Positions 31,700 through 56,436 of a stretch of DNA of 64,000 nucleotides are shown piece by piece. Both the position numbers and the translations under genes were made by a program. Location of the stretch: NCBI GenBank assembly GCA_038363925.1, contig JAQQWL010000006.1, positions 4,444,501-4,508,500 of the forward strand, read 5' to 3'. This DNA comes from Apiospora phragmitis (Eukaryota > Ascomycota > Sordariomycetes > Amphisphaeriales > Apiosporaceae). The stretch's first letter is position 1. Each line of letters begins with the position of its first letter. The notes under the pieces are model-generated. The model saw only the letters and a program-made list of their open reading frames with translations, was not told the DNA's origin and searched no databases.

Positions 31700-31913
31700 A
31701 TGACATATTTTCACCTCACTCTGCTGGTAGTAAGCTGGGTCATATACTTTTATCGTACTCGCCTCAGGCTCACCCATGATCTGCCTAGCTGGTGACCTTC
31801 ACCGCTGGAAGCTACTTCTACAACCTCTACCTGCACCCTCTCCAGAAGTTCCCGAGACCATGGACGCACCGGGCATCGCGTCTCCCTTGGGTCTATCATT
31901 CGCTCCGGGGCGA

Positions 31914-31921
31914 TCTCCACG
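31914..31921 (+). repeat. Left copy of 8-bp target-site duplication (TCTCCACG)
   Basis: TCTCCACG immediately before the insert end CAAGGCTGT. The identical copy is at 56429-56436. It lies inside the P450 codons for D-L-H. Confidence 0.9.
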
Positions 31922-34342
31922 CAAGGCTGTCAATGCACCAACCGAAACCACCATGATTGGCAACCAACCAACCATACAGCCTTGGTGAGCCACCTGGTGG
32001 TTTAAGTGTATTAGGTTAATATGAGGCTTTTTTTATTAAATTCAGTTATATATCGTAATGATTTTTAGTATTATTATTTTATATTAATTAATAAGTCGAA
32101 TTAAAAGCCGCTCTTTATAAAAACATAATATTATAATCTTTATTATTAATATTAATATTAATATTAATATTATATTTCGTTATTCTTAAGTTAATTAAAT
32201 TATAAACGTAAACTTTCTTTAATAAATACTTTAGTTAAATCTTAACGACTACGATTAAACCGCACGAAGCTTAAGTTTAAAAGTTTATATTCGATTTTAA
32301 ATTTATTAATTAGAGATATAAGTTTATAGGATTTATATTATTAATTAAAACTTATAATATATAATAAATTATCTCTTTAAAAAAGTATTATATTATTACG
32401 TTTATTAAAAAGAAAGTTAAAAAAATAATATAAATATAATATTAATAATAATTATTAAAATATAACCTCTTATATAAAACTTAACGTACCTTATAAGCGA
32501 GCTACGTATATAAGCGAGCTGCGCACTTTTAATTAATTTTCTCATAATTAATTTTATATTAATTTTTCTTTTTTTAATAAGTATAGAATTAAAAAATAAA
32601 GAAAGAGGGTTTAATTTAACGTTTTAAGCGCTTAAAAATAACTCGAAATTAAGTGTACGAAAAGTTATAACGATATATTATATCTTAAAGTCGACGTTAT
32701 GTAGTTAACGACGCGGAATTCGATTACGATTCGAAATCTCTATAAACTTGGAAAAACTTTCTAATTTTAAAAAGGAATTAATTATTCGATATATTATTAA
32801 TCTAAATACGCGATCGTTTTTCCCCGGCTAAATAATATAAAAAATATAGCGAATTAATTACTTAGTTTACGCGACGCGAGACGCGTCGGCATTAATTAGG
32901 CCTCTAATTTCGTACGATAATAACTAGACCTCTAAACGCGTTTTAATCGAAGAATCGATTATTAAAAAGTTTTTTATAAAGATTTTAACGCGTATCGTAC
33001 GTAATTTACTTTTATATAGAATATAATTAATATATATATAAGATATAAAAAAAGGATATATATAATTTTAACGAGACTAGGTTTTTTATAAATTAAATCT
33101 CGTTCGAAATAATCGTAACCACCTCCGATTAACGCGGAAAGCTTAAAATAATATAATAAAAGAACCGTAAATAAGTTATAATTATTTAAAGCGTCGAATT
33201 AAACGGTTATACTATCCCTTTATATATTATTTTTACTAAGAAAACGTACCTTTTTTCTTAATATAAAAACAGCTTATTATTAAAAATAACTAAATTATAA
33301 ATAAAAGAGGCGAGGATTAAATTCGATATTTTTATTAATATACTAAGTCTCGTATAAAGGATCGTTATCGCCTCTTAGTTTTAAACGGCTATAAAAACTA
33401 TTACTCGATAATTTTTAAGCTTTATTATAAAAAGAACTTAATTATTATATTTTATATATTTTCTTATTCGTTATATAAACTTTAACCTTTTAATATCAGC
33501 TATTTTTATATATTAAAAAGGTTATATAAAAAAGAAATCAAGCGTTTTATACGGGCACATATTATTTATATCTTAAAGGAGGACTTTTTACCAGCGTTCT
33601 TAAAAGCGTTCTAAGCGACTTTTACTGTTTCGAATATATAAAAACGCTTTCGAAAGATAGGACTTATCTCGTATAATCCGGAATATATTATTTTATAGTT
33701 AGATATAAAGCTACGTATTTTAATACCTCCGGGGATATTTTTCGGCCTATTTATCCTTTTAAAAGTTAAAGATTTTAAATAACTTAATTAAGATTTAATT
33801 TTAAACTTAATACGTTTAAAACCGTATTATATAATATTAAAATAACTCTTTAATATTTATTTTAATTAGTTTTAATTAAATCGTAAAGGCTATAACGTAA
33901 ATCATATACCGAGTTACTCTTTTAAAAGGTAAAAACGCGACATTTTAAAAAATAAATTAAATAAGCTAAAGCACCCCTTTACGGACTACCCCTTTACGGA
34001 TTACCGCGTTTCGCTTTATAAACGCGTTAAATTTTTAAATAATAATATAGATTTTTTTTATTATCTTTACTTTTTAATTATATATATTATTATTATTTTA
34101 TTCGTTTTTTTTAGTTATTTCTTTATATCGTCGTTTAATACTTAAAAACGCGCGTAGGCTACGATACGTAACGTAAAGTTCGAATTAAGTGTTCGCGAAG
34201 CCGTTTATAAATAGGATGCCGACCGATCTTATATTATACGGCGCCTAGCCGGTATATCGACGCGATAAGAGCTAAATAAAGACCGGCAGGTATTGTTATT
34301 ATTTTTCAAGACCTAATTAACGAATTAGGTTATTAGTTAAGT

Positions 34343-34517
34343 ATTACGATCGGCGGGTTAGTCCCCCGCGGGGTAGCACTTAAGGCGTAGAATTAGATAG
34401 AAATAACCCGAAGAGTTATTTTTAAAGCTTTTACTTTATAACGTAATAATTAATTTATACGTATTATAATATAATAACTCTTCGCCTTTACTAAATAGGA
34501 AACGTAGGTTCGATTCC
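34343..34517 (+). repeat. tRNA-like repeat, copy 1 (heavily RIP-mutated)
   Basis: The first 130 bp match the segment at 34708. The A-box position (34439-34449) now reads TAACGTAATAA. A good B box, GGTTCGATTCC, is at 34507-34517, about 68 nt on. Possibly a tRNA-derived SINE or a RIP-damaged tRNA gene. Confidence 0.55.
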
Positions 34518-34707
34518 TATATTTATTAAATAAGAGCTCTCTTTAACTATTTAAGCAAGATCGTTAATAAGTAAGTAAAGCTTTATACGGATTAGTTACT
34601 CGTATAAAAGCTTTAGAGTTTCTTTATACCGAGCTTAAATAAATTATGTAATACTAGGGGTTTATCGCCTTAGGTATAAGGGTATACCTTTAGAGAAAGG
34701 GTATAAT

Positions 34708-34845
34708 ATTACGATCGGCGGGTTGGTCCCCCGCGGGGTAGCACTTAAGGCGTAGAATTAGATAGAAATAACCCGAAGAGTTATTTCCGAAGCTTTTGCT
34801 TTGTGGCGTAGTGGTTAGACTATACGTACTGTAACATTAAGCTAA
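34708..34845 (+). repeat. tRNA-like repeat, copy 2 (better preserved)
   Basis: Direct repeat of 34343-34475, 365 bp apart. Here the A box is intact: TGGCGTAGTGG at 34804-34814, followed by TTAGAC. Differences from copy 1 are mostly G to A (for example TTGC to TTAC), the mark of RIP on one strand. Confidence 0.6.
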
Positions 34846-37800
34846 ACTAGGCTTCGCGTTAATGCTTATTAAGTTTAAATATATAGCTTAACGGATATTA
34901 AACGTTTCCGGGGCGTTTTATACGCTAGGGTAATATTAGTATACCCGATTTTTAATTAAAAACGAGTCCGTTAAGATTATTAGGTTTAAAATAATTAATT
35001 ATAGCAGCGTTAATAGGGTAATTATTATTAATATTAACGTTTTTTTAATAAATTTAATACCTCGGAGCTGGTTAATATCCTTTTTAAACGCTTTTATAAT
35101 ACTAACGAAATAAGTATTAGCTAAGGCGTTAGCGGTAATTATTAGGCGGTTACCGAAGCTATTAGTTATCTAGCTTTTAAAAAAGACGTCGAGAAAGGGG
35201 AATATATTATTACTTTAGAGTATATAGGCTATAATAAGGTAGCCCTCCCGCCGCTAGTTATTTTTAAAGGGGCCGAAGTCTAAAGTTAGTAGTTTCTAGA
35301 CTAAGATAGCTATTTTTAAGATGACTGGCGGTTTAAAGTATCGCTTAGAAGGTGGATTAATAATCCTATAGTATTAGATTAGATTTAGGATATTTTTATT
35401 CCTTATATTCGGTCTCGTCACGGTAATAAATAAGTCGTTTTAATTTATAACGACTATAATTTATATATAAACGGAAACTTTTTATAACTTTATCTTATTA
35501 ATAAGATATGGCTCGTTTTTTACGAGCTATATTATAATTATATCGTATAGGTTTTAAATATAAGAGTTTTTAAGTTATTAAAAAAAGGCTAAGAATCTTT
35601 TTAAAGGTATACTTAAACGCGGTTTTTAAATTTAAGCCTATTAAATTAGATATATTAAAGGTATACCGCCAGGCCAGGATTAACGTTTTAATTTTTTCGA
35701 CGATTTAAAATATTTAAAAAATAACTAGGATTTATCCGCGGGATTAATCGAAACCTTTATTATCGAAATATATTATCCTAAAGGATAAAGGTATTGCCCG
35801 ATTATATCTAGAGCTACCCCTAATAATTGATAAAGAATTAACGGCCGATTTCGTCGCCGAATTAACTTTAACGCTTATTAAAACACCCTTTAATAATTAA
35901 AAACTAACCGCTATAAACCTTACTTTTAATCTCCCTTCTTAAAAATTCTTTACTCGTAAGGCTAGTAAGGCCTTTAATAAATAAATTAATAAAATCGCGA
36001 GCTTTAAAGTTTAAATTAATTATTTTTAAATTAAACTTAGTAAAAAGATTATTAAAATATATTAAAAGGTAAGAATCGTACTGGGATAGCGATTTATTCG
36101 TATAGTTAATATACGACGGGCTAAGCGGAGGCTAAGGGGTAGGGTTATATTTAAGGACGAATCTATCGATATTAAGGTGCTAAGTAGGCCGTAAAATAAT
36201 ATAAAAGGAATAAAAAACGATAGAACGGAGATAAAGGATTATATTATTATTAAGAATATTAGAAAATAACATGTCCTGACTAATTTTAATTATAGAAATG
36301 ACTTTAAATTAAAAGGGTGTGTTTAATGGGTTTTTTAGTCCGCGAAGGGGTAGTTCGTGGAGGGGTGCTTTAGTTTATTTAACCGGCGCCGCTGTATAAA
36401 AGAAACGGCTATAAAATAAAGGATTACTTTATATATAAACTAAAAAACTTATAATCTTAAAAACTTATTAATAAATAATTATAAAACGAATCGCGTTAAA
36501 AAATTTAATTATATTAAAACGTTTAAAACACGCTTATAACGTTATAAAGTCTACGAGAGCCCGGGTATAATACGCGTACTTAGTAAAATAATATAAAAAC
36601 CTTTAAAAATAATAATTATTAATATATTTAATTAGTTATAAACGTTATAATTAACGTAATCCACGGTTTAATTAAATATATGGTTTAATTAAACACTTTT
36701 TAAAACCTTATATAATAAAATATAAATTTATTTAATTATTACGTTTAAAATTAATTAAAACTATTGAGAATTATTTTCGTTAAACGCTTTTATATTATTC
36801 TAATAGGTACGAGTATTATACCCGGGCTCTCGTAGATTTTATAGCGTTATAAACGCGTCCTAGACGTCTTTATATAATTGCTCCTTCGACGCGATTCATT
36901 TTATAATTATTTATTAATATCCTTTTAAAACTATAGGTTTTTTTTAATTTATATACGAAATGATCCTTTATTTTATAGCCGTTTTTTTATACGGCGGCGC
37001 CGGCTAAATATTTTATTTACCTCTCGTAATACGGTTACCTCACTTTTTAAAAAAGCGAGCCGATATATAACCTGCGTTATATTTTTTATAATTTAATTAA
37101 ATTTAATAAGAGTTAATATCGAGGAGTTATTTAAATATTACGCGATTTAATATTTTATATATTAGGTTTAAAACTAAGCTTTAATTAAATTATTTAAAAT
37201 CTTTAATTCTTAAAGTATAAATAGGCCGAAAAAGGTTACTAAAAGCGTTAACGTACGTAGTTTTATATCTAATTATAAAATAATATACTCCGGATTATAC
37301 GATATAAGTCCTACTTTTTAAAAACCTTTTTAAATATTTAAAACGATAAAATTCGCTTAAAACGCTTTTAAGAATATTAATAAGAAGTCCTCCTTTAAAA
37401 TATAAATAATATATGCCTATATAAAACCTTCGATTTCTTTCTTGTATAACCTTTTTAATATATAAAAATAGCCGATATTAAAAGGTTAAATTAAAACTTA
37501 ACGTATCCTATAAGCGAATATTTCACACAAGCGAATGTCTCACTTTTATAGATTTCCTTATAGCTTTAACCTTTTTTTATATTTTTTTACGTCCGAAAAT
37601 ATTATAACTTTAAAAAGAGAGTAATATAATTCTAGTGTTTTAAGCGCTTTAGAAAAACTTAATTTTAAACGTATAAAAAGCTACATTAATTTATTACGTT
37701 TTATCGAAAACCTTATAGCGTAAACGAAATAGCTAACCTATACGACGCGAAATATTTACGAATTCTCGAAAGCTTTTAAATTTTAAAAAAGATACGATTA

Positions 37801-38962
37801 TTCGATATATTATTAATTTAAATAAGCGATCGTTTTTTTCCCGATTAAGTAATATAAAAAATATAGCGAATTAATTTTTTAATTTACGTAACGCGGGACG
37901 CGTCGGCGTTAATTAGGCCTTTAATTTTATACGATAATAATTAAACCTCCGGACGCGTTTTAACTAAAAAATTAATTATTAAAAAATCCTTTATAAAAAT
38001 CCTAACGCGTATCGTGCGTAATTTACCCTCGTACGGAATATAATTTATAAATACGGGATTTAAAAGGAGGATATTTATAATTTTAACGAAACCGGCTTTT
38101 TTATAAGTTAAATCTCGTTCGAAATAATCGTAACCACCTCCGATCAACGCGGAAAATCTAAGGTAATATAATAAAAGAACCGGGAATAGGTTATAATTAT
38201 TTAAAGCGTCGGATTATACGGTTACGCCATCCCTCCGTATATTATCTTTACTAGGAAAACGTACCTCTCTTCTTAATACGAAAACAGCTTATTACCGAAG
38301 GACTAGGTAATTATAGTTACTAAAAATGGCTAAACTACGAATAAAAAAAGCGAGGACTAAATTTAATACTTTAATTAATATACTAGGTTTTATACGAAAA
38401 GTTATTATTGCCTCTTAGTTTTAAACGGCTATAAAAGCTATTACTCGATAACTTTCGAGCTTTATTATAAAAAGAACTCGATTATTATACTTTATATACC
38501 TTCTTATTCGTCGTATAAGTTCTAGCCTTTTAATATCGGCTATTTTCGTATATTAAAAAAGGCGTACGAAAAAGAAATTAAATATTTTATACGGGCCTAT
38601 ATTATTTATATTTTAAAGGAGGACTTCTTATTAATATTTTTAAAAACGTTTTAAGCGATTTTTATTGTTTCGAATATATAAAAAGGCTTTTAAAAAACAG
38701 GACTCGTCCCGTATAATTTAAAATATATTATTTTATAATTAGATATAAAGCTACATATTTTAATACTTTTAAAGACGTTTTCCGGCCTATTTATTCCTTA
38801 AGAATTAAAAACTTTAAATAACTCGATTAAAGTTTAATTTTAAACCGAATATGTTCGAAACCGTATTATACGGTATTAAAATAACTTTTCGATATTTATT
38901 TTAATTAGCTTTAACTAGATCGTAAAAGCTATAACGTATATTATATACCGAGTTACTCTTTT

Positions 38963-39169
38963 TATTAAAATAATTAGAACTGAAGCTATTTATATTATTT
39001 TAAAAAAAGTATTACGTATTTACGCGTATAAACCCTTTTCTTATTTTATTAAGAGGGGTATACGATACCCCTCGTAGCTCGTATTAAAAATAGATATAAA
39101 TAATAGAATAAGAATAATTAAACCCCGATTAAAACCGGAACTATTGTATATACGAGAGCTTATTTAATA
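38963..39169 (+). repeat. 5' LTR of Copia 1 (207 bp)
   Basis: Starts TATTAAAATAATTAG and ends TTTAATA (RIP-altered TG...CA ends). It is preceded by CTTTT, the same 5 bp that follows the 3' LTR. The 3' LTR at 45740 has the same length. Confidence 0.85.
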
Positions 39170-42100
39170 CTGATTAGTGGTTACCCGTGGCGATTATAGA
39201 TTAGTAAGAGTGAAGAAACGGTTTTACGCTTTTACCGATGTAAGGGCGATCGTGCTAAGGAGCTTTGAGAATTTCCGCCCGTTAAAAATTCGGAGGAAGA
39301 GCCGAACTGAATTAACTGTACGAGGAGGAACCCCTTTTTTTAAGTATATATTATAAGGAGGAGACCAGGTTCCGAATTATATGCGAAACTAGTTAGGCTA
39401 TATATAATTATATATTTAAATAAATTTATTATATAATTTATAAAATAATAACCCTTGTTAAATAGAATTAATCGCGGTCGGCGAATCGGGATCGAGCCTG
39501 GACGTACCGAACCTAGATAGACCGATAATTTTAAACCCCAAACCGTTTATGTATAAAGAAGTATCTTAAAATACCGGAATTTTTTTAATAGTTTAAAAAA
39601 GAAACGTTAACCTCGCTTTTTAAGAATTCGAACTTTTAAATATACTTTTTAAAGAGATAATACCCGAATTATTTATAATATACTTTATATAATACTTTTT
39701 AAAATATTATATATTAAAAATAAAAAGAACTTCTTTTAAAAAGTTATTTATTATAAAGTTTAATAGATAAACCGAATACTAATTCGGCTAAATTAACCGT
39801 ATATTTTAAAAAGAGCTCTTTAATTATTTTAAAAAATACGGAATCGATATATTAACGGACGGATCTTTTAAAATTAAACTTATAAGTTTAGTATTACCGG
39901 CCGATCTTATATATTAATAAGACCGACCGGCAGAACCGACTTCGGAAACCCGAAAAGAGGATGTTCTACACTTTTCCCGAGAATAGATAGTCGAAGAACC
40001 GCCGCCTAAGCGAGAGATACCCGGTTTTTATACGGAGTAATTATTCGCGATATTATAAGGCACTTTAAGACCGACGTTTAATCCCGGAGTTTTAAATATT
40101 CTAGGCCCGACGTCTAACCCTAAATTCCTAAATACCTGAGCGTCGTAAAACGTTATCCTTTTTCCTTTTCCGACTCCGATACCGCCGGATTAGACGGCAC
40201 GATTATTTAGTTTAGCGTATATTACGGAATACGATATCCTTTTAAGCCGAGCTATTTATAACGGCAAAATCGATCAGAATAAGGTCGTTATTTTTTCGAA
40301 GGTGTGGAGGAAGGAAAAGAACTATACCGGTAAGCCGTACGATATCTTTTACGATAAAGTACGGATATTTATTAGAATATACCGACGGCTAGATATATTA
40401 AAAGACTAATATTATGCAGTTTTTTTAAATATTTTTTCCGGCCGTGCGGAAACATTCTATTTTAATTATATCGGACTTAAAAAGAAATAGAACAAGATAT
40501 ATTATTTAATAAATTCGTATTTTAATACGATAATAAATTATATATAATATTTTACGGATTAAATAATAATTTCTTTCGTATAAATAAAAAATAAAAACGT
40601 TAAGAAATAATTTATCGAAGTTTTAAAAATCTTACTAAATAAGCTCTAGCTCGTATAACGAGCTTTTAAAAAAGGATTTAAAAAAAAGATCGCTTTTTAT
40701 ATCTCCGTCGTAAAAGCTTATTAAAAAGTTTTAGAACTTTTACCAACCTTTATTTATTAAAAACTAATATATAAAGCGTTATTTTTGAACTTTCGCGTAT
40801 TATTAAATATAATAATAAACTAGATATTATTAAAATAATATTTAATAAAGAAATTATATCGAAACCCGGTTATAAATACGTACCTAATTAATAAACGGTT
40901 TATAAATAACCGTATAAAAAGAAACCGACTAGCCTATAGTAACAAATTACTATATAATAGCCGACTACTAGGATAGGAAAGGATCCAGCGACCCGCCGGC
41001 ACCTTCCGACCAAAATTACTATATAGGAATTAGAAGTTTAAACGAAGAACCTACCGAATCTATTATAAGTAAAATTATTAATTAATAAACCACCTAGCCG
41101 AAGAATAGTTTTAAATAAAAAACTAATATTTTTAAACGTATAATAATATTGGATAAGGCCTTTTTTTTAAGATAAGTACGAAACGTTCGTCTAAAACTAA
41201 AAAGAGGATAAAAAAAGCTAGAAAATAACGAAAAAAAGTACGAATACCTCGATTTAAAAAATATATAATAAAATATTACTCACTTAATAGACGCCGCGTT
41301 TTACTACCAGTTTATTAATAAAAATATTTATTCGGAAGTTATTATATAAGCCGATTAATTTAATTTTAATAGTTTATATAATTAAACTTATTAAGGAAAG
41401 CTTTAAAATACCGGCGCTGCTTTATTTTTAATAATCGGAAAGCTTTAAATAAAAGTTTACGCATAAAAGAATTTAAACGTATAAATCGATTAGACCCCGA
41501 GAAGCGTCGAAATTAAGTTTAAAAGTTTAAAATTTATTTCGTTAATTAAAATAATTAATATATAAAACTTATTAAAAATAATAAGGTATTATATTTTAAA
41601 TATTATAACTCTTTTTTTATTTTTATTATATAACGCCGACCGGTTTAAAACGTATTATAATAATATCTTTAATTTTATTATATAAAAGGATAACGAAATA
41701 CTTTTTATAATTAAAAAATAAGGATACCTGTTCTTTAATACCGGCCGTATAAAAATAACGTTATATTTTATTAAAAAATAGTTTCGATACTTTTATTAAC
41801 GTTTTAAATACCTTTATATAGAGAAGCTTTATACTTTTTTAAAAAACGCCGGCTACGATAACATTGATCTTATTATTCTCGACGAGATCTAAAAGTTCTG
41901 CTTTTAATACTAAATATACGATCCGGTATTATAAAGATTTAAATTCTCGTTATAAAATAAATACGATTTTAATTACGAAATTATTATAAACGTTATTTAC
42001 GTTAATAAATAAAATATATTTTATATAATTAATTTAAATATATCTTTTTAAACGGTTATATTCTTATATTCGCTTAATATACGAAATATTTAAAATATCC

Positions 42101-43104
42101 TTTATAAATGCTAAATATACGTATATTAGGGACCCTTTAATTGTATCTTATATAATCCGGGTATATACTTTTAAAAAAAGTTTCGTAATTATATATAAAT
42201 AATAGGAATTATTTATAAATAAACGCTTATTAAAGCCTATTAAGTAATAAGTAAGGTTAAATAAGTATATATTCCGTTACGTAGGGCCTTCGATATTTTA
42301 TAAAAGGATTTCGGTTATTATATAAATACCAAAATAGTACTCTAGATAATAATTAAAGCTTTAAACGATACGGCTGGCTTTAACGGCTTAATATTTATTT
42401 TATTTATATTCGGAGTATACCTTTATATCGATAAGAATTTATTACCGTTACTAGAGATCTAAATATAAGGAGAAACTATACGGAAAGTAATAAAGATACT
42501 TCGGAAAATACGTGTAAATATCGATATTTACCGAGCTCTAAACACTTAAAATAGACCAGCTATTCAAAATATTTTAATACTCCCGCTTGAGAATAAAGTC
42601 TTGGTTTAGCGGGAAAAAAAAATAAACCGGACCATATAAGATAATAGTTATTAAAAACCGTATAATCCGAATAGATACCTTAAACGGCTTAAAAGCTTTT
42701 CGAATAATTTAAATCAAGCCGTATTACCAGGAAAAGGCCGAAGAACCGCGTAACGAGCCGGATACATAACTAGATTTAAAATAGCCGGCAGATACCCCAG
42801 ATACTGAACCGATAGCCGAAGAAATTACGGTAGTTCCTATACGACGCGGCCGAGGACGACCTAAAAAATACCTACTCCGAAACGTTCGAGCCACTATATT
42901 CCTTACTTAAAAAGAATAAGAGAATTACGAGCTAGTAATTAAACTCCGATAGGACAAGGTTATTACCTCGTCTAGATACCCGTTTTAAAAGTCTAACGTA
43001 GAGGAGATTAATAATTTCGCTGTACGAGGGGTTTTCGAATTTATTCGATTCGACCTGAATAAGTATACCGGCCGGAGAATTTTTAAATACGGCTCGTATA
43101 AGAA

Positions 43105-43400
43105 ATTAAGGGTAAAACTACGAAGCCGTATAAAAAGTTTAGGCTCGTAATATAGGGCTACGGAAATATAGAAAAAGAGGTTATTTTAATTTAATTATTA
43201 ATAATCCAGCGAATAAACTAAAGATTCTTTTTAGCTTTCAGACCGACCTTAATCCGAGACTTTAATATACAAGGCGAGCTACGCGATATTATATAAGCGT
43301 ATACTTAATTATATAATAAATTAAACCGATTAATTTATATACGCTTATTAATAAAGTTAAAAACTTAATACTCCGAAAAAATATTATTTTAAATCGTATT
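43105..43400 (+). pseudogene. Reverse-transcriptase remnant of Copia 1
   Basis: Reading plus-strand codons gives KSRLVIQGYGNIEKEVILI, a stretch with QRFFLAFRPTLI, and RDFNIQGELRDI, followed by LNRLIYA. The order of these motifs is that of the Ty1/Copia RT N-terminal part. Several stops are TAA/TAG at CAA/CAG positions, as RIP would make. It is a relic and not translated. Confidence 0.7.
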
Positions 43401-45739
43401 ACCTTTATATAAATTAATAAAATTAAAATTTTATTAATTTAAAACGTATTATAATTATTATATATAAAATTTAAAAATAATTATATTAATATATAACACT
43501 TATTTATTATTTATTACGGAAAGACTAGATATTTTCGGTATTATAATAATATAAACCGACGATACGTTTAGCTTCGTTATAACCCCTTTTTTAAAAAAAA
43601 AAAGAAGAAAAGTTAATAAAGAAATAATTTCGTATAAAATTAAAAAATATTTTAACCGAAAATACGCCGATCGAATTTAACGGAGGCAAGATTCGATTAA
43701 AATCGTACGATATTTTTTTTAAATAAAAAGGATAGGTTAACTAATTAAAGTTTATTAACCTAAAAGTTATTAATAAAGGCTAGCAGTATATCTTTTAATA
43801 TACGAGAGGAGCATATCTCGTATCTATTTATTAATTAGAAGTAGCGTACGACCTATCTGCCGCCGCTTAAGTATAAACTTTAAAGAATAAAAATATCGAA
43901 AACTTAAATATATAAATTAATTAATAAATCTAGAATTAGATACGCGGCTTAAAATATATCCCGCTTAACTTTTATTATATAAAAATATATATTTTTATTA
44001 ACGGCTCGTTTATAAATAATAAAGACTTAACTTCTTAACTCGGATATTTAATTTTATTAAGCTAAAAAATTCATTATACGAAAGATAAATTTTAAATCTA
44101 AGGTAATATTATTTATTAAAACTCGATTAAATATAAAAAAGTTATTAAAAGCGTACTAACTAGCGAACTATACAGTATAACTTCCGGTATAAACAGCGGC
44201 ATTATATTAAATACCATACTTAAAAGAATTATATAAATATTAAAATTCTAAAATATTCCAATAACTTTTTATACAGACTCGAAATTATTTTATAACTACT
44301 TAATTAAACTAAGTATAATAAACAAGAAAAGGCTTATAATTAATATTATATCCTTTTAAGAATCGTATAAAAAAAGGGAGATATTAAAGGTTTATTATAT
44401 TAATAATAAAGATAATCCGGCAGATACTTTTATTAAGGTATCCCTAAACAAGGCCCTCGAATAGCTAATCTCGATAAATAGCCTTACTATATACACGGAA
44501 GCGTATATCGAGAGGTTAAATTTATACGGCGAGTAATTAAAAAAGAAAAGATATAAAAAAAAAAAAGAGATTTCTTTTATTAATCCTTTTTTATATAATT
44601 ATTACCGATATATTTTATTTATTAAATATTATATAAAAATTAAAAAAAAACCGTAATATATTATAATTTAAACGGGTAATACAATAAAAATAACTATATA
44701 AAAACGTTATTTATATATATACGAAAACTATTTACTTTATTTATTACTAATTTATTATTATACGATTATTATTTTAATTTTATTATTATTACTTCTATTT
44801 TCATTATTATTAGGATTAAGGTTTACGAATCGTAAGTTATAGTACGAATACTAATTATTATACGAAGTTGAAACATACGAAATATAAGCGCCGTCTTAAT
44901 ATCTATTAAAACGAACATATTTATAAAACGAAATATAGGATTAGACGTACTAATTATTATAAACGCTATTAATATTATTACGCGACTAGACGAGAACTGT
45001 ATAAAAATAGCCCTCGTAACGAATAATACGAGCGAACAGGCGGCGAATATCGTTATTTACCGGTACGCGTATCTCGATATCGCGGTTTAATAAATTATAA
45101 ACGCGAACTTCCTTATTTTATTATACGAAATTAATAAACGTTAAAAACTAAAAAAGAAATAGGATATTATATATTAATATAAAGTATAAGTATAGCTTAC
45201 CGATTTTAAACCGAAGAAATTAATAACGTTATTTAGCATTAATTACGATTAATTATATTAATAATAATAATATTAAAAGGATTAATAACTTATTAATTAA
45301 ATATTACGTAAATATATATATATATATTTATAAATATATATATAGGTATATAATTTATTTTCGTATAATATTTTAAAAAAGAAAAATATATATATATATA
45401 AAAAAAGAGGAATTTATACTATACGAATTATTTACGTACAAAGGAATATTTATTTATAAAACTATTCTTATTAATCCCTTACGGGGTATAATGTATTAAG
45501 ATATGTAACGGTCCCTTTATTATTATTATTACTTTCGAACGAACGATTAAAATAATTAATTAAGTAAACCTGCTACTTAGTTAAAATAATATTAAAAAAG
45601 TATAATATTACTTATACAGTTTAAATAGGTACTTAATACCGAATTAAAGTAACCCAACCGTACGAGACCCTCGTAAAAAAAAACTTATATCTAAAAAAGG
45701 GAATAGGTTAATTTTATCATTAAAATAGAAAACTGTTAA

Positions 45740-45946
45740 TATTAAAATAATTAAAACTAAAGCTATCTATATTACTTTAAAAAAAGTGCTATGTATTTAC
45801 GCGTACAAACCCTTTTCTTATTTTATTAAGAGGGGTATACGATACCCCTCGTAGCTCGTATTAAAGATAGATATGAATAATAGAATAAGAACGATTAAAC
45901 CCCGATTAAAACCGGAACCACCGTACATACGAGAGCCCATTCAACA
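45740..45946 (+). repeat. 3' LTR of Copia 1 (207 bp)
   Basis: Ends TTCAACA, followed by the CTTTT duplication. Differences from the 5' LTR are transitions. Confidence 0.85.
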
Positions 45947-46429
45947 CTTTTAAAAAATAAAAACGCGATACTTTGAAAAATAAATAAAATGCTTAGCTAG
46001 CGCCGCCGTACGAAAAAAAAACGGCTACAAAATAAAAAGTTATTTCGTATATAAGCTAAAAAAGATTTATAATTTTAAAAAAACGTTAATAAATAGCTAT
46101 AAAACGAATCGCGTCGAAGAAATAATTATATAAAAATATTTAAAACACGTTTATAACGTTATAAAATTTACGGAGAGCCCGGGTATAATACGTATATTTA
46201 TTAGAATAATATAGAAGTATTTAAAAATAAGGATTCCGATTAATTTTAATATATTAAATACATTATAATAAAATTAATTTATATTTTATTAAAAAAGGTA
46301 TAAAAAAATAAGATATTCGTTTATATAGGATATTCGCTTATAAAATACGTTATATAATAAATAAAAAAGTATATAAAGTATAATAATCGAGTTCTTTTTA
46401 TAATAAAGCTTAATAATTATCAAGTAATA

Positions 46430-48339
46430 AGCCAGCTGACGGTGCTACGGTCACCCTATGTAACGGCGACCCCAAAAACTAATAATAATACTATATAATA
46501 ATAATATAAATAATTTAATTAAAAATTAATATAAAATATTATTTTAATCTTAAAACGCTTTTATAATACTTTTAATTTTAGATTTAGAGTTAGATTTAAT
46601 TATAACGGCTTCGGCGCCGATAATAAAGGAGTAACAGCTTAGGGTTCTAATATAACGTTATTTATTTCCCTCTTAATTATTATAGCATCTCGTATACGTA
46701 TAAATTTCTAGTTAGGGTTAGGTATTACTTTTTTTCCTCTTTTTATTTCTTTTTTTTTTTAAATTACTTTTTAAAACTAACTTCTCGTGCTCTAATTAGC
46801 CGATCTAGCCGTTTAAAATATCTAAACTTTTTTAGAGTTTCCGGAATAAAACCTGGCGCGTCGCGCCATCGAAAATAATATTATTATTATTAAGCGTATC
46901 CGCTAACTTTTTAATTTAGCGGTTAATTATAAATATTAATAACGCTATAAAGGAAAATTATTTATCGAAAACGTTAGAGGGAGGCTTAAATAATCCTGCC
47001 TCTACTTAATTTTTTATTCTCCGGTTCTAGTTATTAAGAGGCTTATTAATATTACGAAAAAATATATTAATTACGGCTTAACCGCTAATTATTATATACG
47101 GCTAAAAAATAAACTTTCTAGCTAGCTCGTAATATTAAAAAAAGTCTCTTTTATTTATATTTATATTATTAAACCCTATATAGTATAGGGTTACTTTTTA
47201 ATAATAAATATCTTTTAATATATTAAAAAAATTAAAATCTAAGGGTTATAATAGGTGTAACGAGTATACCGGAAAAAAAAAAAGCTATATTTTATACTTT
47301 AAACACGTTATAATAAAGTCTTCGTTTACGTGGCTAGCGTAATTATTTAAAATAATAAGCCGTTATTAATCCTCGTTTTTAAGCTTTATATAAAGGATAA
47401 AAACTTTATTTAACTATATTAAAACTAGCTCTTTATTAGTCTAACCTTTAGGGGATGCCGTAAAAACTTAATTTTTTATAATATTCGTTAACGAGTCCTC
47501 CTCTTCCAGAAACTATTATTACTAGACCTATTAACCTTTAAATATAATAAAAGGAGGTAAGGCTCGGCCTAAAACGTTATTATATTCGACTATAAAAGCC
47601 TATTTTCAATTAAAAGAGTTTATAACTAGTATTCTTTTTATTTTAATAAGTTTAATAATTATTATATTCGTTTTATAGCCAAGCTAGTTACCGATCTTAT
47701 TAATATTAAACCGAAACTTTAAAGGGATCGATTTTAAAATAGTATTATTAAACCGTTTAAAAAACTCGATAATTTTTTTCCGGAAGTTACGTTAAGTTTT
47801 AAAAAATCTATCCTTTTAAAAAAAGTAATATCGATAGATAGATAGCAAGTAATAAATCTTTTAACTTAATGTTTACCGAGGATTATATTAATCCCGTTAG
47901 CTTAAAAGATCCGTTAGGTAAATATCCGGAAGATAATATACGCCGGTAAACAGCTTAGATCATACTATATAAAATACCAAGTTACGATTTAAAACTCTTC
48001 CGCTATTATTAAGGCTTAGAAAGATTTATTCCGTTATTTTATAGCTTTACAACTATAAATCCGAGTTTTTAAAGTTATTTTAAGGATATTATACTTCTCG
48101 GCGGCTTATTTTATTAACGAGCTATTTATAATATCTTAAATCGCGCGTTATAATATTAACTCGTTAAGTTTACGGCTTATTAAAAAAAGGAAAAGAAAAG
48201 GAAAACGATGGTATTATTTAATTAATTATAAATTAAAAGCTGACTGGTTTATATACTGATTTATATATGGTACTATCAGGGGCTATTTAAATTTAGGGGT
48301 CGCCGTTGCATAGGGTGACCGTAGCACCGTCAGCTGGCT
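46430..48339. mobile_element. Element F: Fot1-like DNA transposon (1910 bp, 44-bp TIRs)
   Basis: The 44-bp terminal inverted repeats at 46430-46473 (AGCCAGCTGACGGTGCTACG...) and 48296-48339 differ at one position (C/T). TA duplications lie at 46428-46429 and 48340-48341. Size and TIR length agree with Fot1 of Fusarium (about 1.9 kb, 44-bp TIRs). The transposase is unreadable after RIP. The uninterrupted target is visible in element A copies 1, 2 and 4 (AGCTATTACTCGATAA type). Confidence 0.85.
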
Positions 48340-48401
48340 TAGCTCTTATAGCCGTTAAAGATTAATAAATAATAAATATTTTTCGTACGAAACTTCGTAT
48401 A

Positions 48402-48610
48402 TATTAAATAGGCTTTCGTATATACGTACAGGTTCCGGGTTTAATCAAGGTTTAATCGTTATATTTTATTATTTATATCTATCTCCTCTATTAGTTATGA
48501 GGGGTATCGTATACCCCTCTTTATGAAAATAAAAAAGGGGTTCGTACGCGCAGGTACGTAATACTTTTTTTAAAGTAATATAAAAAACTTTAATTCTTAT
48601 TATTTTAATA
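48402..48610 (-). repeat. 3' LTR of Copia 2
   Basis: Inverted copy of the Copia 1 LTR (AGGGGTTCGTACGCGCAGGT is shared). Preceded on the left by GTATA (48397-48401). Confidence 0.8.
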
Positions 48611-48784
48611 TTAATAGTTTTTATTTTAATAATAAACTTAAGTAGCTCTCTTTTTTAAAACGAGTCTTCCTTTTATAAGGGTTTCGTACGAATAGGTTAC
48701 GCTAATTCGGTATTTAGTACTTACTTAAGCCGTATAAGTAATATTATACTTTTTTAATATTAATTTAATTAAATAATAGGTCCT

Positions 48785-48816
<32 letters not shown>

Positions 48817-51338
48817 TATATATTAATATACATTAATTCTTTATTATTAATTAAAAATAATAATAATAATAAAAGTAATAATAATAATAAAGGCGTTATC
48901 GTATATCGCGATACGTTATACCCCGTTAAGGAAAAAAATATCTCTCTTTCTCTCTTTTCTTCTTATTCGCCGTACGAGTCCAGTCTCTTAACGTACGTTT
49001 TTACGCGTATAGTTAACCTATTAATTAATATTAGCTATTCGAAGGCTTTATTTAGAGATTTTTTAGTAAAAACGTTTATAGGATTATCTCGGCCGTCGAC
49101 CTAATAGATCTCCGAGATTTCCCTTTTTTTATATAATTTTTAAAGCGATATAATATCGATTATTAATCTTTTCTTTTTCGTCGTTCTTAGTTTAATTAAT
49201 TATTTATAAAGTAAATATCCTTATTCATAAGCTGGTAATAGAACGCGGCGTCCGTTAGGTAAATAATGCCTTATTATACGTTTTCCGGATCGAAATAGTT
49301 ATACTCCTTTTCGTTGTTTTTTAGCTCCTTTTTTTCCCTTTTTAATTTCGAATAAAATCCCTATATTCTTTTTAAATAAAGAGATCCTATTTAACGTTAT
49401 TACACGTTTAGAGGTATTAAGTTATTATATAGGTTTGTTTTTCGGTTAGGTGGTTTATTAATTAATAGCTTTATTTCTAGTAGGATTCGGCAGGTTCCTT
49501 ATTCGAACTGCCGATTCTTATATAATAGTTTTAGTTAAAAGGTAATAACGGGTTGCTAATTACTTTCTTATTCTAATGGTCGGTTATTATATAGTAATTT
49601 ATTATTATAAATTAGTCGGTTTTTTTTCGTATAATTATTTATAAACCGTTTATTAATTAAGTACGTATTTATACCTAGGTTTTAATATAGTTTCTCCGTT
49701 AAATATTATTCCGAGATCCTTTAGTTCGTTATTATATTTAATAATACGCGAAAGTTTAAAAATAACGCTTTATATATTAGTTTTTAGTAAATAAAGGCTA
49801 GTAAAAGTTCCGGAACTTTTTAACAGGCTTTAATGACGGAGGTATAAAAAGCGATCTCTTTTTCGAATCCTTTTCCGAAAGCTCGTTATACGAGCTAGAG
49901 CTTATTTAGTAAGATTTTTAAAACCTCGATAAGTTGTTTTTCGGCGTTTTTATTTTTTATTTATACGAAAAAAATTATCGTCTAGTTTGTAAAATATTAT
50001 ACGTAATTTATTATCGTATTAAAGTATAAGTTTATAAAGTAATATATCTCGTTTTATTTCTTTTCGAGTCCGATATAATTAAAATAAAATACCTCCGCAC
50101 GGTTAGAAAAAATATTCGAAAATATCGCATAATATTAATCCTTTAATATATTTAATTATCGGCATATTTTAATAAATATCTATACTTTATTATAAAAGAT
50201 ATCGTATAGCTTGCCGGTATAGTTTTTTTCTTTTTTCTATACCTTTAAAAAGGTAATAACCTTATTTTAATCGATTTTACCGTTATAAATAGCTCGGCTT
50301 AGAAAGATATCGTATTTTATAATGTACGCTAAACTAGATAATCGTACGGTCTAGTCCGGCGGTACCGGAGTTAGAAAAAAAAAAGGACGATATCTTACGA
50401 CGCTTAGGTACTTATAAATCTAGGGTTAGACGTCGGGCCTGGAGTGTCCCGTGGTATCGCGAACGATTACTCCGTATAGAGACCGGGTGTCTCTCGCTTA
50501 GGCGGCGGTTATTCGACTATCTGTTCTAGGGAAGAATATAGAACATCCTTTTTTTAAGTTTCCGAACTTGGTTTTATCGATCGGTCTTATTAGTGTATAA
50601 GAGCGGCCGGTAGTACCAGGCTTACGAGCTTAGCCTTAAAAGATCTGTTCGTTAATATATCGACTCTATATTTTTTAAAATAATTAAAGAGCTCCTTTTA
50701 AAACGTACGGTTAACTTAACTAAATTAGTACTCGATTTATCCGTTAAACTCTATAATAAAAAACTTTTAAAAGGAGGTTTACTTTATTTTTAATATATAG
50801 TATTTTAAAAAGTATCGTGCGAAGTACGTCGTAAGTAGTTCGGGTATTATCTTTTTGAAAAATACGTTTAAAGGTTCGAATTCTTAGAAAACGAGGTTAA
50901 CGTTTCTTTTTTAAATTATTAAAAAGATCTCGGTATTTAAAAAAACTTCTTCGTATATAAATAGTTTTAGGTTTAAAGTGATCGGTTTATCTTAGCTCGG
51001 TATATCCGGGCTCGGTCTCGATTCGCTAACCGTAATTAACTCTATTTTAATAAGGGTTATTATTTTATAAATTATATAATAAAATTATTTAAATATATAA
51101 TTATATATAACTTAATTAATTTCGTATATAATTCGAACCTTAGTCTCCTCTTTATAATATATACTCGAAAAAAGGGGTTCCTCCTCGTACGGTTAATTCA
51201 GTTCGACTCTTCCTCCGAATTTCTAACGGGCGGAAATTCTCGGGGCTCCTTAGCACGGTCGCCCTTACGTCGATAAGGGCGTAAAACCGTCTCTTTACTT
51301 TTATTAATTTATAATCGTTACGAGTGATTATTAATTAA

Positions 51339-51548
51339 TATTAAATAAGCTTTTATATATATATATATAAATTCCGGGTTTAATTAAGATTTAATCGTTA
51401 TATTTTATTATTTATATTTATCTCCTCTATTAATTACGAGGGGTATTATATGCCCCTTTTTATAAAATAGAAAAGGGGTTCGTGCGCGCAGGTACGTAAT
51501 ACCCTTTTTAAAGTAATATAGAAAACCTTAATTCTTATTATTCTAATA
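51339..51548 (-). repeat. 5' LTR of Copia 2
   Basis: About 210 bp, with a TA-repeat expansion near 51355-51370 relative to the other LTRs. Followed by GTATA. Confidence 0.8.
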
Positions 51549-51610
51549 GTATATTTATTAAAGTATCGAATTCGGTCCTTACTTTTTTCGTTTATAATTT
51601 AGCCGTTTTT

Positions 51611-51710
51611 AATAATTACGATTATTTAATCTTTTAATAATTACGATTATTTAATCTTTTAATAATTACGATTATTTAATCTTTTAATAATTACGATTAT
51701 TTAATCTTTT
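51611..51710 (+). repeat. Four tandem copies of a 25-bp unit
   Basis: The unit AATAATTACGATTATTTAAT plus CTTTT starts at 51611, 51636, 51661 and 51686. Copies are identical, although everything around them is RIP-mutated. Other copies of element A have a single unit at this place. Confidence 0.85.
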
Positions 51711-52569
51711 AATAATAAACTATTTTCGTATTAAAAAAAGAAGTACGTTTTCTTAATAAATATAATATACGGAGGAATAGCGTAACCGTATAATTTAACG
51801 CTTTAAATAATTATAACCTATTCCCGGTTCTTTTATTAAATTATTTTAAATTTCTCGTATCGATCGGAGGTATTTATAACTATTTCGAACGAGATTTAAT
51901 TTATAAAAAAGCCGGTCTTATTAAAGTTATAAATATTTCTTTTTAAATCTTATATTTATAAATTATATCCCGTATTAAAATAAATTACGTATAATACGCG
52001 TCGGGATCTTTATAAGAGACTTTTTAATAATCGATTTTTTAATTAAAACGCGTCCGGAGGTCTAATTATTATTATATAAAATTAAAGGCCTAATTAATAT
52101 CGACGTGTCTCGCGTCGCGTTAATAAAATAATCGATTCGCTATATCTTTAATATTATTTATTTAAAATAAAAACGATCGCGGATTTAAATCAATTATATA
52201 GTATATAATTAAAACAATTTCGAAATTCGTAAGCTTTTATATTAGTAATTATACATCCCGTCGTAGAATACCACTATAATACCGGTAATATAAGGTTATA
52301 TAAAAGAAATTATATATTTATATTACGGATCGTACGTTTAATTTAAAGTCTTTTTAAAGCGTTTAAAACGCTAATTATATATCGCTCTCTTTTTATTAAT
52401 TTCCTATTATAAATAATAAAAATATAAAGCATAAAATATAATTTATAAAGAATTATAAGAGAGTATTTAATTAAACTATAGATTACGTTAAATTAATTTA
52501 AAACTTATAGAGCTTAATAATAAAAAGCGCGTAACTGGTTTATATGTATAACTCGCTTATAAGGTATAT

Positions 52570-53517
52570 TAATTAATAAAACTTTTATAAGAACTTAATA
52601 ATTTATAAATTAATTAAATCCTTTAATAAATAATACTTTTAATAATTATTAGTTTAATAAACTATTAATAACTCTTTACTTTTAAATTAAGTTAAAGTTA
52701 AAGAATTTTATATTATTTATATATACTTAAACTTTTAAATTAAAGAATACTAAGCTTTTTAATAAGTCGAAATATTATACGAGCACGCGTTATTTTTATA
52801 TTTAAACATTATTAGTAAACTATTATTTAAGTATTATATAATATGTTTAAATAAGTTTATTTTAGTTTATTTTAGTTTAAATAATTTTATTTTAATTTAA
52901 ATAAGTTTATTTTAGTTTAAATAAATATATATAATTTTACGTACTTTTTCGTAACGTATTAATTAATTAACGTTAAAAAATTATTGTTAAATTTTTATAA
53001 ATTATTAATTACTATCTTAATAAAACTATTAATAGAGTTATAATTAAAGTTATTAATATATATAATATTTATAATAAGGTTAAATATTTTATATTTAATA
53101 ATACTAATAATATAAATATTATAATAACTTTTATTAGTTTTTAACTTAGTTTTAATAAAAGTTATTAACGCGGTCGTTACTTTACTTATATTTTATACCT
53201 AGTTATTAAATACTAGCGATAATATAATTATATACTTAAAAAAAAGTAAGAAATAACCGTTAATTATTATAAATAATAACGGAAAAAAAACTAGTTAATA
53301 AGCTTCGAAATCTTATCGTTATTTTTATTAATTAAAGTAACCTACTTAATAAGCTATTCTTTATAAATTAAAAGAATAAATAAACTAATTTTAATAACTT
53401 AATAAATCGAAATAGAAACCGTTTTTAACTTATTATAAATAATTAAACACGTTAATTAAAAAATATTTATATAATTAAACATATTATTAAATTACGTTTT
53501 TATTTTAAATATACTTA
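52570..53517. other. AT-rich RIP-mutated DNA, no gene
   Basis: Lies between element A copies 3 and 4. A degenerate tandem array of an AAGTTTATTTTAGTTTAAAT-like unit is at about 52850-52930. The original element is not identifiable. Confidence 0.5.
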
Positions 53518-55308
53518 ACGTACCCTAAGGTCTAATTTCCTACTTTCTTATATTTTCACGTAACGCTTTATTCTCACCGCGTTCTTTTATTATATTACTA
53601 TAGTTAGCTTTTAGAAAAAAAAGTCACGTTATTTTAACGTTATAAGCGCTTTAAAACGATTTAAAATTAAGTATAAGACGTGCGGCTAAAATATACGATA
53701 TTTTATAAAAAACCTTTTTAATTATTAACGTAAACGCTTACTAGTTTTAAAGAAGAATTAATTATAAAGTATATAAATAATTTAAATTCGTAATCGTTTC
53801 CACCTCGTATAAGTAGCGTTAAAGATATAACGAATCGATCATTCGATTAACGCGACGCGGGATATATCGGCGTTAATTAGGCCTCGAGCTTTATATAATA
53901 ATAATTAAACCTCCGAACGCGTTTTAATCGAAGAATCGATTATTAAAAGGTTTTTTATAAAAATCCCGAAGCGTATCGCGCGTAGTTTACCTTTATACGG
54001 AATATAATTTATAAATATAGGATTTAAAAAAAGAATATTTATAACTTTAACGAGACCGGCTTTCTTATAAGTTAAATTTCGTTCGAAATAATTATTACCA
54101 CCTTTAATCGATATAAAAAGTTTAAAGTTATATAATAAAAGAATCGGGAATAAGTTATAATTATTTAAGGCGTCGGGTTATACGGTTACGCTATCCCTCC
54201 GTATATTATCTTTATCGGAAAAACATAACTCTTTTCTTAATAGGAAAATAGCTTATTACCGAAGGATTAAGTAATCGTAATTATTAAAAACGGCTAAATT
54301 ACGAATAGAAAAAGCGAGGATTAAATTTAATATTTTAATAAATATATAAAGTTTTATACGAAAAATATTTATTATTTATTAATTTTTAATGGCTATAAAA
54401 GCTATTATTTAATAATTTTCGAGCTTTATTATAAAAAGAACTCGATTATTATATTTTATATATTTTCTTATTTATTATATAAACTTTAACCTTTTAATAT
54501 TAGCTATTTTTATATATTAAAAAGGTTATATAAAAAAGAAATCGAGCGTTTTATACGAGCACATGTTACTTATATCTTAAAGGAGGACTTTTTACCAGCG
54601 TTCTTAAACGCGTTCTAGGCCACTTTTATCGTTTTAAATATTTAAAGAAGTTTTTAAAGGGTAGGATTTATACCGTATAATTTAGAATATATTATTTTAT
54701 AATTAAATATAAAGCTACGTACGCCGATATTTTTAATAACATTTTTCGGCTTATTTATACTTTAAAAACTAAAAACTTTAAATAATTTAATTAAAGCTTA
54801 ATTTTAAACCGAGTATATTAAAAATCTAGTCGCGCGATATTAAAATAGCTCTCCGGTATTAATTTTAGCTAAGCTTAATTAAATTACGAAAGGTATAACG
54901 CAGGTTATATACCGGCTCGCTCTATTAAAAAGTGAGGTAACCGTACTACGAGAGGCGAATAAGATACTTAGCCGGCACCGCCGTACGAAAAAGAAACGAC
55001 TATAGGATGAAAGATCACTTCGTATATAAGCTAAAAAAGATTTATAGTCTTAAAAAAACGTTAATAAATAGTTATAAAACGAATCGCGTTAAAAGAGTAA
55101 TTATACGAGGACGTTTAAAACGCGCTTATAACGCTATAAAATCTGCGGAGAGCCCGGATATAATGCTCGTACCTGTTAAGATAATATAGAAGTATCTAGA
55201 GATAAGGATTCCGATTAATTTTAAAATATTAAATACGTTATAGCGGAATTAATTTATACTTTATTAAATAAAGTGTTTAAAGGTGGTTATTTAAACCGTG
55301 GGGTACGT
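53518..55308 (+). mobile_element. Element A copy 4 (Fot1/pogo type), uninterrupted
   Basis: The element is 1791 bp from ACGTACCCTAAGGTCTAATT to CCGTGGGGTACGT, with TA on each side (53516-53517, 55309-55310). At about 54580-54730 a degenerate transposase C-terminus reads EDFLPAFLNAF, then VGFIPYNLEYIIL and LNIKLRTP. Fot1/pogo transposases end with this pattern (GLxPxDPxxVLxKLxVxLRTPTPP). This copy is the best reference for the family and shows the empty targets of F, Copia 1 and D. Confidence 0.8.
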
Positions 55309-56428
55309 TAAAATAAAGGTATATTAAAGTTTAAAAATGCTTTATATACGTTATATAATAAGTATATATTTAAAAGAGATAAATTAATATACGCTTAAAT
55401 ATTAAAGACTTATATATATAATATAAAATAAACTCGGTAAATAAATACGAAACTTAAGGCTTTTAACACTCGCTTTTTAAAACTTACTATATTAATCGAT
55501 TATTTATAATTACTTTCATAAATTTAAATTTATTTTATTAAAATTAAAGCCTTTTAATATTAAGGCTATTAATAACCTCGATTTAATAAAATATTAAATT
55601 AATATTAATATTACGTAGGTTTAGTTTAAGGCGTATTATTAAAATTTAATTTATATATTTATATATTACGTCCCTTATATATTTAATTTAATTTAATAGT
55701 AAATATTAATTAAAAGAATATAACGCGAGAGTTAATAATAAATTCGTAATGTAAGGAAACATATATAAATTAATTAATATAAAAACTTAAATATAATAAA
55801 CTTTATATTATAATTTATTTTAAATAAATAACGCGTATATATTATTAGTTACTTTTAATAATAAATAATTGCGAGTTAATTAATAATAATAAAGCGCTTT
55901 ATAATAAATCGATTAAGCTTTTCGATTCGAATATATTAAATTCAATAAAATACTAGTATTAATGATATTTAAAATACACTCGGCTTTTTTTATAATATTA
56001 AACTTTTTACTATATAAACTATATTAATTAAATATAAAGAATTATTTTTTATAATTAATTATTTATTAATTATAACTAGTTATTGTTTAAATATTTTAAT
56101 TATAAAGATTTTCTTAACTTTTTAATTTTAATATAAAACTAATATTATTTATAAAATTAATTTAAGAAATTTATTAATTTTAATAAAAATAGTAAATAAA
56201 ATAAATAATAAGGTAATATATATTAATATATAGTTATAATAATAAATTTCAAAAGTTAAATAAATTACTTAATATTAAAAGATTATTACTAATGAACTAG
56301 TTAACTAACCATTAACCAACCAAACCACAGGCTCCCAAACAACCGAAAACATCAACCAACCGGCTAGACATGACTAACCAATCAACCGATGCTAGTCGGT
56401 TGGTGTGGTTGGGACATTAACAGCCTTG
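55309..56428. other. AT-rich filler and right subterminal region of the insertion
   Basis: RIP-mutated, element-free DNA to about 56290, then about 140 bp with normal base composition and repeated AACCAACC/GGTTGGT motifs. It ends at CATTAACAGCCTTG beside the right target duplication. Confidence 0.55.
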
Positions 56429-56436
56429 TCTCCACG
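56429..56436 (+). repeat. Right copy of 8-bp target-site duplication (TCTCCACG)
   Basis: Identical to 31914-31921. P450 coding resumes at 56437 in the frame left at 31921. Confidence 0.9.

What the first reader, a model, noticed from the sequence alone, without database searches (positions are those of the whole stretch)
31914..56436. A P450 gene is cut by a single 24.5-kb insertion with an 8-bp target duplication, and its frame is restored exactly on excision
Seen: TCTCCACG occurs at 31914-31921 and 56429-56436. The DNA between has inverted ends, CAAGGCTGTCAATG and CAAGGCTGTTAATG. Joining 31921 to 56437 continues the P450 codons (GDLH then DHLRRLQQRYG) with no base missing. The seven coding segments total 1464 nt with all splice phases right. 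Known: hAT transposons make 8-bp target duplications. Inferred: one hAT-like element entered the exon and later grew to 24.5 kb by receiving other transposons, while the P450 outside stayed almost intact.
Basis: partly seen in the sequence, partly recalled or inferred. Interest (0 to 1): 0.95.

Follow-up and report, generated by a model that had tools for sequence, protein, structure and literature searches.

The report
Nested hAT insertion splits fungal P450
In this fungal genome a jumping gene landed inside a P450 enzyme gene, several other jumping genes then landed inside it, and the fungus's own anti-transposon mutation wore most of it down; this is an ordinary kind of event, preserved with unusual clarity.

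Summary
Confirmed. The window lies in a 5.69-Mb contig of the fungus Apiospora phragmitis. A P450 exon is cut by 24,507 bp flanked by the 8-bp repeat TCTCCACG. Three orthologous proteins run straight through that point. The host insertion is a hAT element of the Restless-like kind: an un-mutated 3,137-bp relative carries a hAT dimerisation domain, transposase relics lie in the window, and sister copies share its ends, some with 8-bp duplications. About 2.6 kb of the insert is hAT; the rest is a 20.1-kb nest up to four insertions deep plus one 1.8-kb element. The insert is saturated with repeat-induced point mutation (RIP), except near its ends, where RIP rises inward from 10% to 85% of target sites (left, 15 copies) and 14% to 92% (right, 12 copies). 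The P450 frame and splice sites are open, but the FPGP hinge and heme-loop glycine are changed. No close second copy was found in the genome. The public model is a 403-residue protein lacking the 5' part. It is a new example of a known kind; the RIP gradient is the only mildly new observation.

The parts
31700..31921 (+). 5' part of the P450: exon 31700-31729, intron 31730-31788, exon 31789-31921
   Evidence: Frame and splice sites; aligns to the N-terminus of three orthologs; no Pfam match for this 54-residue piece alone
31914..31921 (.). Left copy of the 8-bp target duplication TCTCCACG
31922..32481 (+). hAT host element, left part; outer ~75 bp almost free of RIP
32482..52568 (.). 20.1-kb nested block inside the hAT element
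   Evidence: Three sister copies (L032, L035, L036) run through this point; internal maps
32482..36650 (+). Element E copy 1 (32482-33965 and about 36374-36650), cut by element F; its last ~66 bp were not found
33966..36373 (.). Element F, 2.4 kb, inverted ends CTAAAGCACCCC; family and target duplication not resolved
36652..52568 (-). Element E copy 5, in pieces 36652-37490, 46350-46429, 48340-48405, 51550-52568
37498..46349 (+). Element E copy 3 (37498-38962 and 45947-46349), inside E copy 5 and cut by element B
38963..45946 (+). Element B, LTR-retrotransposon-like, 6,984 bp, direct terminal repeats about 215 bp and 89% alike, 5-bp duplication CTTTT
46430..48339 (.). Element D, Fot1/pogo-like, 1,910 bp, about 50-bp inverted ends, TA duplication
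48402..51548 (-). Element C, 3,147 bp, related to B, direct terminal repeats about 210 bp, 5-bp duplication GTATA; orientation inferred
52569..53514 (+). hAT host element, middle part
53518..55308 (+). Element E copy 4, 1.8 kb, TA duplication, inside the hAT element
55310..56428 (+). hAT host element, right part, with transposase relics at 55502-55855 and 56003-56374 (26 stop codons) and the right end
56429..56436 (.). Right copy of the 8-bp target duplication
56437..58021 (+). 3' part of the P450: exons 56437-56793, 56852-57153, 57227-57541, 57615-57781, 57859-58021
   Evidence: PF00067 E 4.2e-53; public model P0001 is identical over its 403 residues

Best explanation
A single Restless-like hAT DNA transposon inserted into an exon of a P450 gene in the A. 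phragmitis lineage and duplicated 8 bp (shown). It has stayed there: both duplications and both ends are present (shown). Element E entered it at two places: copies 1 and 5 as one block, and copy 4. Elements F, D, C and a further E entered those, and the LTR-like element B entered the further E, a chain of four insertions (order read from the nesting: shown; the relation of E copies 1 and 5 is not fully resolved). RIP then saturated the insert, so the hAT transposase in it is dead (shown) and the nested elements very probably too (inferred). The insertion ended production of a normal full-length P450 (inferred), and the gene has begun to change at conserved sites (suggestive).
For: Exact duplication and ends; orthologs continuous at the cut; un-mutated family member with PF05699 E 2e-18, Hermes matches in the PDB at about 5e-9, restless-like names among relatives; window core collinear with it; relics in the window with 26 stops; of six two-ended copies three have a perfect 8-bp duplication, window included, and one 7 of 8; three sister copies empty at the block; own duplications of B, C, D and E copy 4; RIP indices of the insert 1.32 and 0.19 against 0.73 and 1.17-1.22 outside.
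Against: Two of the six two-ended copies have no duplication, one of them the un-mutated copy. The last ~66 bp of E copy 1 were not found, so the block's history has a gap. F's duplication was not resolved. No reads or other strains could be examined, so an assembly error at a border is not formally excluded.
Confidence: 0.95

Rival explanations
1. The two P450 halves belong to different genes brought together by rearrangement or misassembly.
For: Reads could not be examined; the un-mutated hAT copy does sit at a junction without duplication whose two flanks look unrelated.
Against: The halves align to adjacent segments of the same three Apiospora proteins with no residue missing, and the duplication is exact.
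Confidence: 0.02
2. The insert entered as one large 24.5-kb element (a giant composite or cargo-carrying transposon).
For: The outer ends belong to one element and no other hAT copy sits at this place.
Against: Sister copies have very different lengths (about 0.7, 4.0, 5.1 and 5.8 kb between ends) and three run through the 20.1-kb block's place; inner elements have their own duplications; the inner families occur at many other places.
Confidence: 0.02
3. The 3' half is still a working gene: a shortened P450 of 403 residues made from a start inside it, as the public model has it.
For: Open frame and good splice sites over five exons; annotated publicly.
Against: It lacks the N-terminal hydrophobic segment and the first conserved stretch; the heme-loop glycine is arginine where A. 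arundinis and A. saccharicola have glycine; 5 of 12 species-specific changes fall at sites conserved in at least 90% of the outgroups, against 2 of 18 in A. arundinis (Fisher p 0.08, so only suggestive).
Confidence: 0.08

Closest known systems
Restless-like hAT elements of fungi (Restless, Tolypocladium inflatum: its length and ends recalled, not looked up)
   Same: 8-bp duplications, short inverted ends, transposase with the hAT dimerisation region; relatives named restless-like transposase in A. marii and A. phragmitis.
   Different: The window copy is RIP-dead, reduced to about 2.6 kb of hAT sequence (3,137 bp in the un-mutated copy) and filled with other elements.
Fot1/pogo elements of the Tc1/mariner group
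   Same: Elements D and E: TA duplication and inverted ends; DDE_1 matches inside 15 other D copies and one E copy (positions compared by eye).
   Different: The window copies themselves are not in the DDE_1 list, which holds 150 scored of 376 candidates.
RIP-mutated nested transposon islands in Pezizomycotina
   Same: AT-rich, RIP-saturated nest of several families; nesting and RIP are discussed together in fungal genome papers (listings).
   Different: Here the nest can be traced to one base-exact insertion in a gene whose frame is still open.

Membership tests
hAT superfamily | 8-bp target duplication | tested here: met
   Window exact; of six two-ended copies 3 exact, 1 with 7 of 8, 2 none
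hAT superfamily | Short terminal inverted repeats shared by the copies | tested here: met
   13 of 14 bases in the window; 19 exact occurrences of CAAGGCTGTYAATG in the genome, 0 of the reversed control
hAT superfamily | Transposase with C-terminal dimerisation region | tested here: met
   PF05699 E 2e-18 in the un-mutated copy; in the window relics only, 38-40% identical with 26 stops
hAT superfamily | DDE catalytic residues in an RNase-H fold | not tested
   The intron-split transposase was not assembled or modelled
Cytochrome P450 | P450 domain with heme-binding cysteine loop, ExxR and PERW motifs | tested here: met
   PF00067 E 4.2e-53; EGVR, PERW and GPRDC read (motif names recalled); the loop glycine after the cysteine is arginine, so activity is doubtful
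Fot1/pogo (element D) | DDE_1 transposase, TA duplication, inverted ends | tested here: met
   TA and inverted ends in the window; DDE_1 at family level only, in 15 other copies
LTR retrotransposon (elements B, C) | Direct terminal repeats and a short target duplication | tested here: met
   Repeats of about 215 bp, 194 of 217 and 186 of 211 ungapped columns identical; 5-bp duplications CTTTT and GTATA
LTR retrotransposon (elements B, C) | Reverse transcriptase | tested here: inconclusive
   RVT_2 (Copia type) had 6 matches in the genome, none in the window; other reverse-transcriptase families not searched

The most novel reading that the evidence does not exclude
RIP in this fungus falls off toward the ends of inverted-repeat transposons, so even RIP-killed copies keep ends that a transposase could recognise. 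The gutted 24.5-kb hAT shell might then still be moved in trans by an un-mutated Restless-like copy, making RIP leaky by geometry.
Probability: 0.13. Interest if true: 0.6.

Novelty: new member of a known kind. Interest (0 to 1): 0.3.

Why it matters
It is a cleanly readable case of gene loss: one base-exact insertion, then a nest four insertions deep, in a gene whose frame is still open. It corrects a public gene model (PG994_006604 lacks its 5' part). The RIP gradient at the hAT ends is a simple, countable quantity that bears on how RIP recognises the edge of shared homology and on whether mutated transposons keep usable ends.

Tried and rejected
End sparing as a general rule of RIP: rejected as stated. 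It is clear for the hAT ends (15 left ends; 12 right ends). Element D shows it only over the outer 15-30 bp, in 16 of 20 ends that matched a near-intact pattern; the other 4 were not profiled, so the outermost value is biased upward. The window's own D ends carry one or two CpA-to-TpA-like changes by eye. Element E ends are mutated in 24 copies with AT-rich flanks (33 CpA+TpG to 260 TpA) and less in 3 copies with GC-rich flanks (13 to 21, 8 of the 13 from one copy); 27 of 30 loci entered the count. For element C, 8 of 10 fetched 5' repeat starts read TA and 2 read TG, by eye.

Movement after RIP, tested by shared mutated sites in ten copies: inconclusive. Copies are 74-93% saturated and the best pair (z 3.4) does not include the window.

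A C-to-T and G-to-A collapsed BLAST against the insert gave top scores of 870 and 810 against 428 and 356 for reversed controls, but many overlapping placements near the control level, so I did not rely on it. A loose BLAST was swamped by AT-rich chance matches.

A second P450 split by the un-mutated hAT copy: its upstream flank is a P450 5' fragment (PF00067 E 2e-7), there is no duplication, and the ORFs beyond it did not look like P450 to me (one of them scanned without a match). L117 was fetched and not analysed.

Dating by terminal-repeat pairs: not taken further, since 20 of 23 (B) and 24 of 25 (C) differences are transitions, as RIP would give.

Literature: eight searches; no listed title or abstract start described this insertion. 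On the RIP gradient I saw only find-passages of PMC12543289, PMC4858203, PMC10787394, PMC10294615, PMC2621366, PMC4188875, PMC10853768 and PMC11969663. PMC2621366 reports a slight rise of RIP toward the ends of one repeat family (against my reading) and central RIP in long rDNA repeats (for it). PMC4858203 says mutation covers the extent of shared homology. I therefore do not claim the gradient is unknown.

Full report
What was checked. The 8-mer occurs three times in the window, so its weight comes from abutting both inverted ends. The insert is 24,507 bp at 25.4% GC; the flanking DNA is 53.0% and 55.9% GC.

Where it comes from. The genome is 52.67 Mb in 19 contigs. The contig is 5,690,558 bases, the same as that given for P0001, PG994_006604 of Apiospora phragmitis, which is 100% identical to the 3' half over its 403 residues. 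The public model starts at MYAAPRGG and so misses the 5' part.

The gene. The seven segments sum to 1467 nt including the stop. The 3' half is a P450 (PF00067 E 4.2e-53); the 54-residue 5' half alone gives no Pfam match but aligns to the N-terminus of the same orthologs, which run on through the cut point. Some relatives carry the label trichothecene C-15 hydroxylase; that is an annotation, not a tested function. Among the 19 neighbouring ORFs scanned without error, and one 118-residue piece of this P450, Pfam showed another P450, a NACHT-ankyrin protein, an RNase H and a few others; I saw no toxin cluster, but introns were not modelled there. Against three orthologs, A. phragmitis has 12 unique changes at 196 sites, 5 at sites conserved in at least 90% of the outgroups used (ten proteins named). 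A. arundinis has 18 at 202, 2 conserved; A. marii 44 at 228, 15 conserved; A. saccharicola 29 at 213, 4 conserved. I used only A. arundinis for the test (Fisher p 0.08), because the A. marii and A. saccharicola models contain stretches that do not look homologous; with them the excess would be less clear. FPGP reads FPRP, and the glycine two residues after the heme cysteine reads arginine. The best match elsewhere in the genome is 42% identical (103 of 174 candidates scored), so no close second copy was found.

The host element. A 3,137-bp copy at C3:1243658-1246794 is not RIP-mutated (indices 0.66 and 1.21). A 372-residue ORF in it has the hAT dimerisation region (E 2e-18), matches Hermes and proteins some of which are named restless-like transposase. 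The window core matches this copy in order at 1-251, 420-551, 735-990, 1283-1879 and 2140-3137. Transposase relics lie at window 55502-55855 and 56003-56374 with 26 stop codons. Of six two-ended copies, three have a perfect 8-bp duplication (window included), one 7 of 8, two none.

The nest. Three sister copies run straight through the point that in the window is split by 32482-52568. Inside are elements E (copies 1, 3, 5), F, B, D and C; E copy 4 lies apart in the hAT element. First-look candidates in the genome were 647 for E, 561 for C and 167 for D, of which at most 40 each were scored. The deepest chain is hAT, E copy 5, E copy 3, B. Element B (CTTTT), C (GTATA), D (TA) and E copy 4 (TA) have their own duplications. 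DDE_1 matches lie inside 15 other D copies. B and C look like LTR retrotransposons by structure; a Copia-type reverse-transcriptase search found nothing in the window.

RIP and the ends. With the un-mutated copy as reference, the fraction of CpA/TpG sites read as TpA in 15 other left ends is 0.10, 0.10 and 0.13 in the outer three 25-bp bins, 0.29 at 76-100, 0.85 at 176-200 and 0.67 in the innermost thin bin; in 15 of 15 copies it is lower in the outer 75 bp than beyond 150 bp (one search had 12 copies, 0.06 rising to 0.85). At 12 right ends it rises from 0.14 through 0.40 (26-50) to 0.92 (151-175) and is 0.62 in the last thin bin. In the window no left site before reference position 142 is changed, but the right end has changes at 10, 35 and 63. 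Elements D, E and C show less or none of this. Two readings stay open: RIP acts less near the edge of shared homology, or copies with working ends kept moving. A test on shared mutated sites was inconclusive.

Verdict. The mechanism is ordinary: hAT insertion, nesting, RIP, gene loss. Novelty is low; the end gradient is worth a genome-wide count.

Noticed in passing
31922-31996 and 56291-56428; sister copies L003, L005, L027-L040 and others: RIP rises from about 10% of target sites at the hAT termini to about 85-92% some 150-200 bp inward.
   Followed up: partly
46430-48339; L077-L096: Element D (Fot1/pogo-like) keeps its outermost 15-30 bp largely free of RIP although it sits in AT-rich mutated DNA.
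   Followed up: partly
L029:559-3695 (C3:1243658-1246794): An un-RIPped hAT copy with a 372-residue transposase ORF, no target duplication, beside a P450 5' fragment.
   Followed up: partly
L016, L040, L041 (C1:2603216-2613658): A second lightly mutated hAT copy: transposase stretches 79-87% identical with 0-4 stops.
   Followed up: no
31922 left end; L003: The window copy and the copy at C10:27.6 kb share a ~60-bp deletion just inside the left end, marking a sub-lineage.
   Followed up: no
27774-30507: NACHT (NPHP3_N) and ankyrin-repeat ORFs, a fungal NLR-like gene.
   Followed up: no
7325-10169: RNase H ORF followed by diverged repeats of about 52 bp.
   Followed up: no
10960-11656: A second P450 fragment (PF00067 E 1.7e-19 in 11084-11656) in overlapping frames, gene model not worked out.
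   Followed up: no
51607-51706: A 25-bp unit repeated head to tail about four times inside E copy 5.
   Followed up: no
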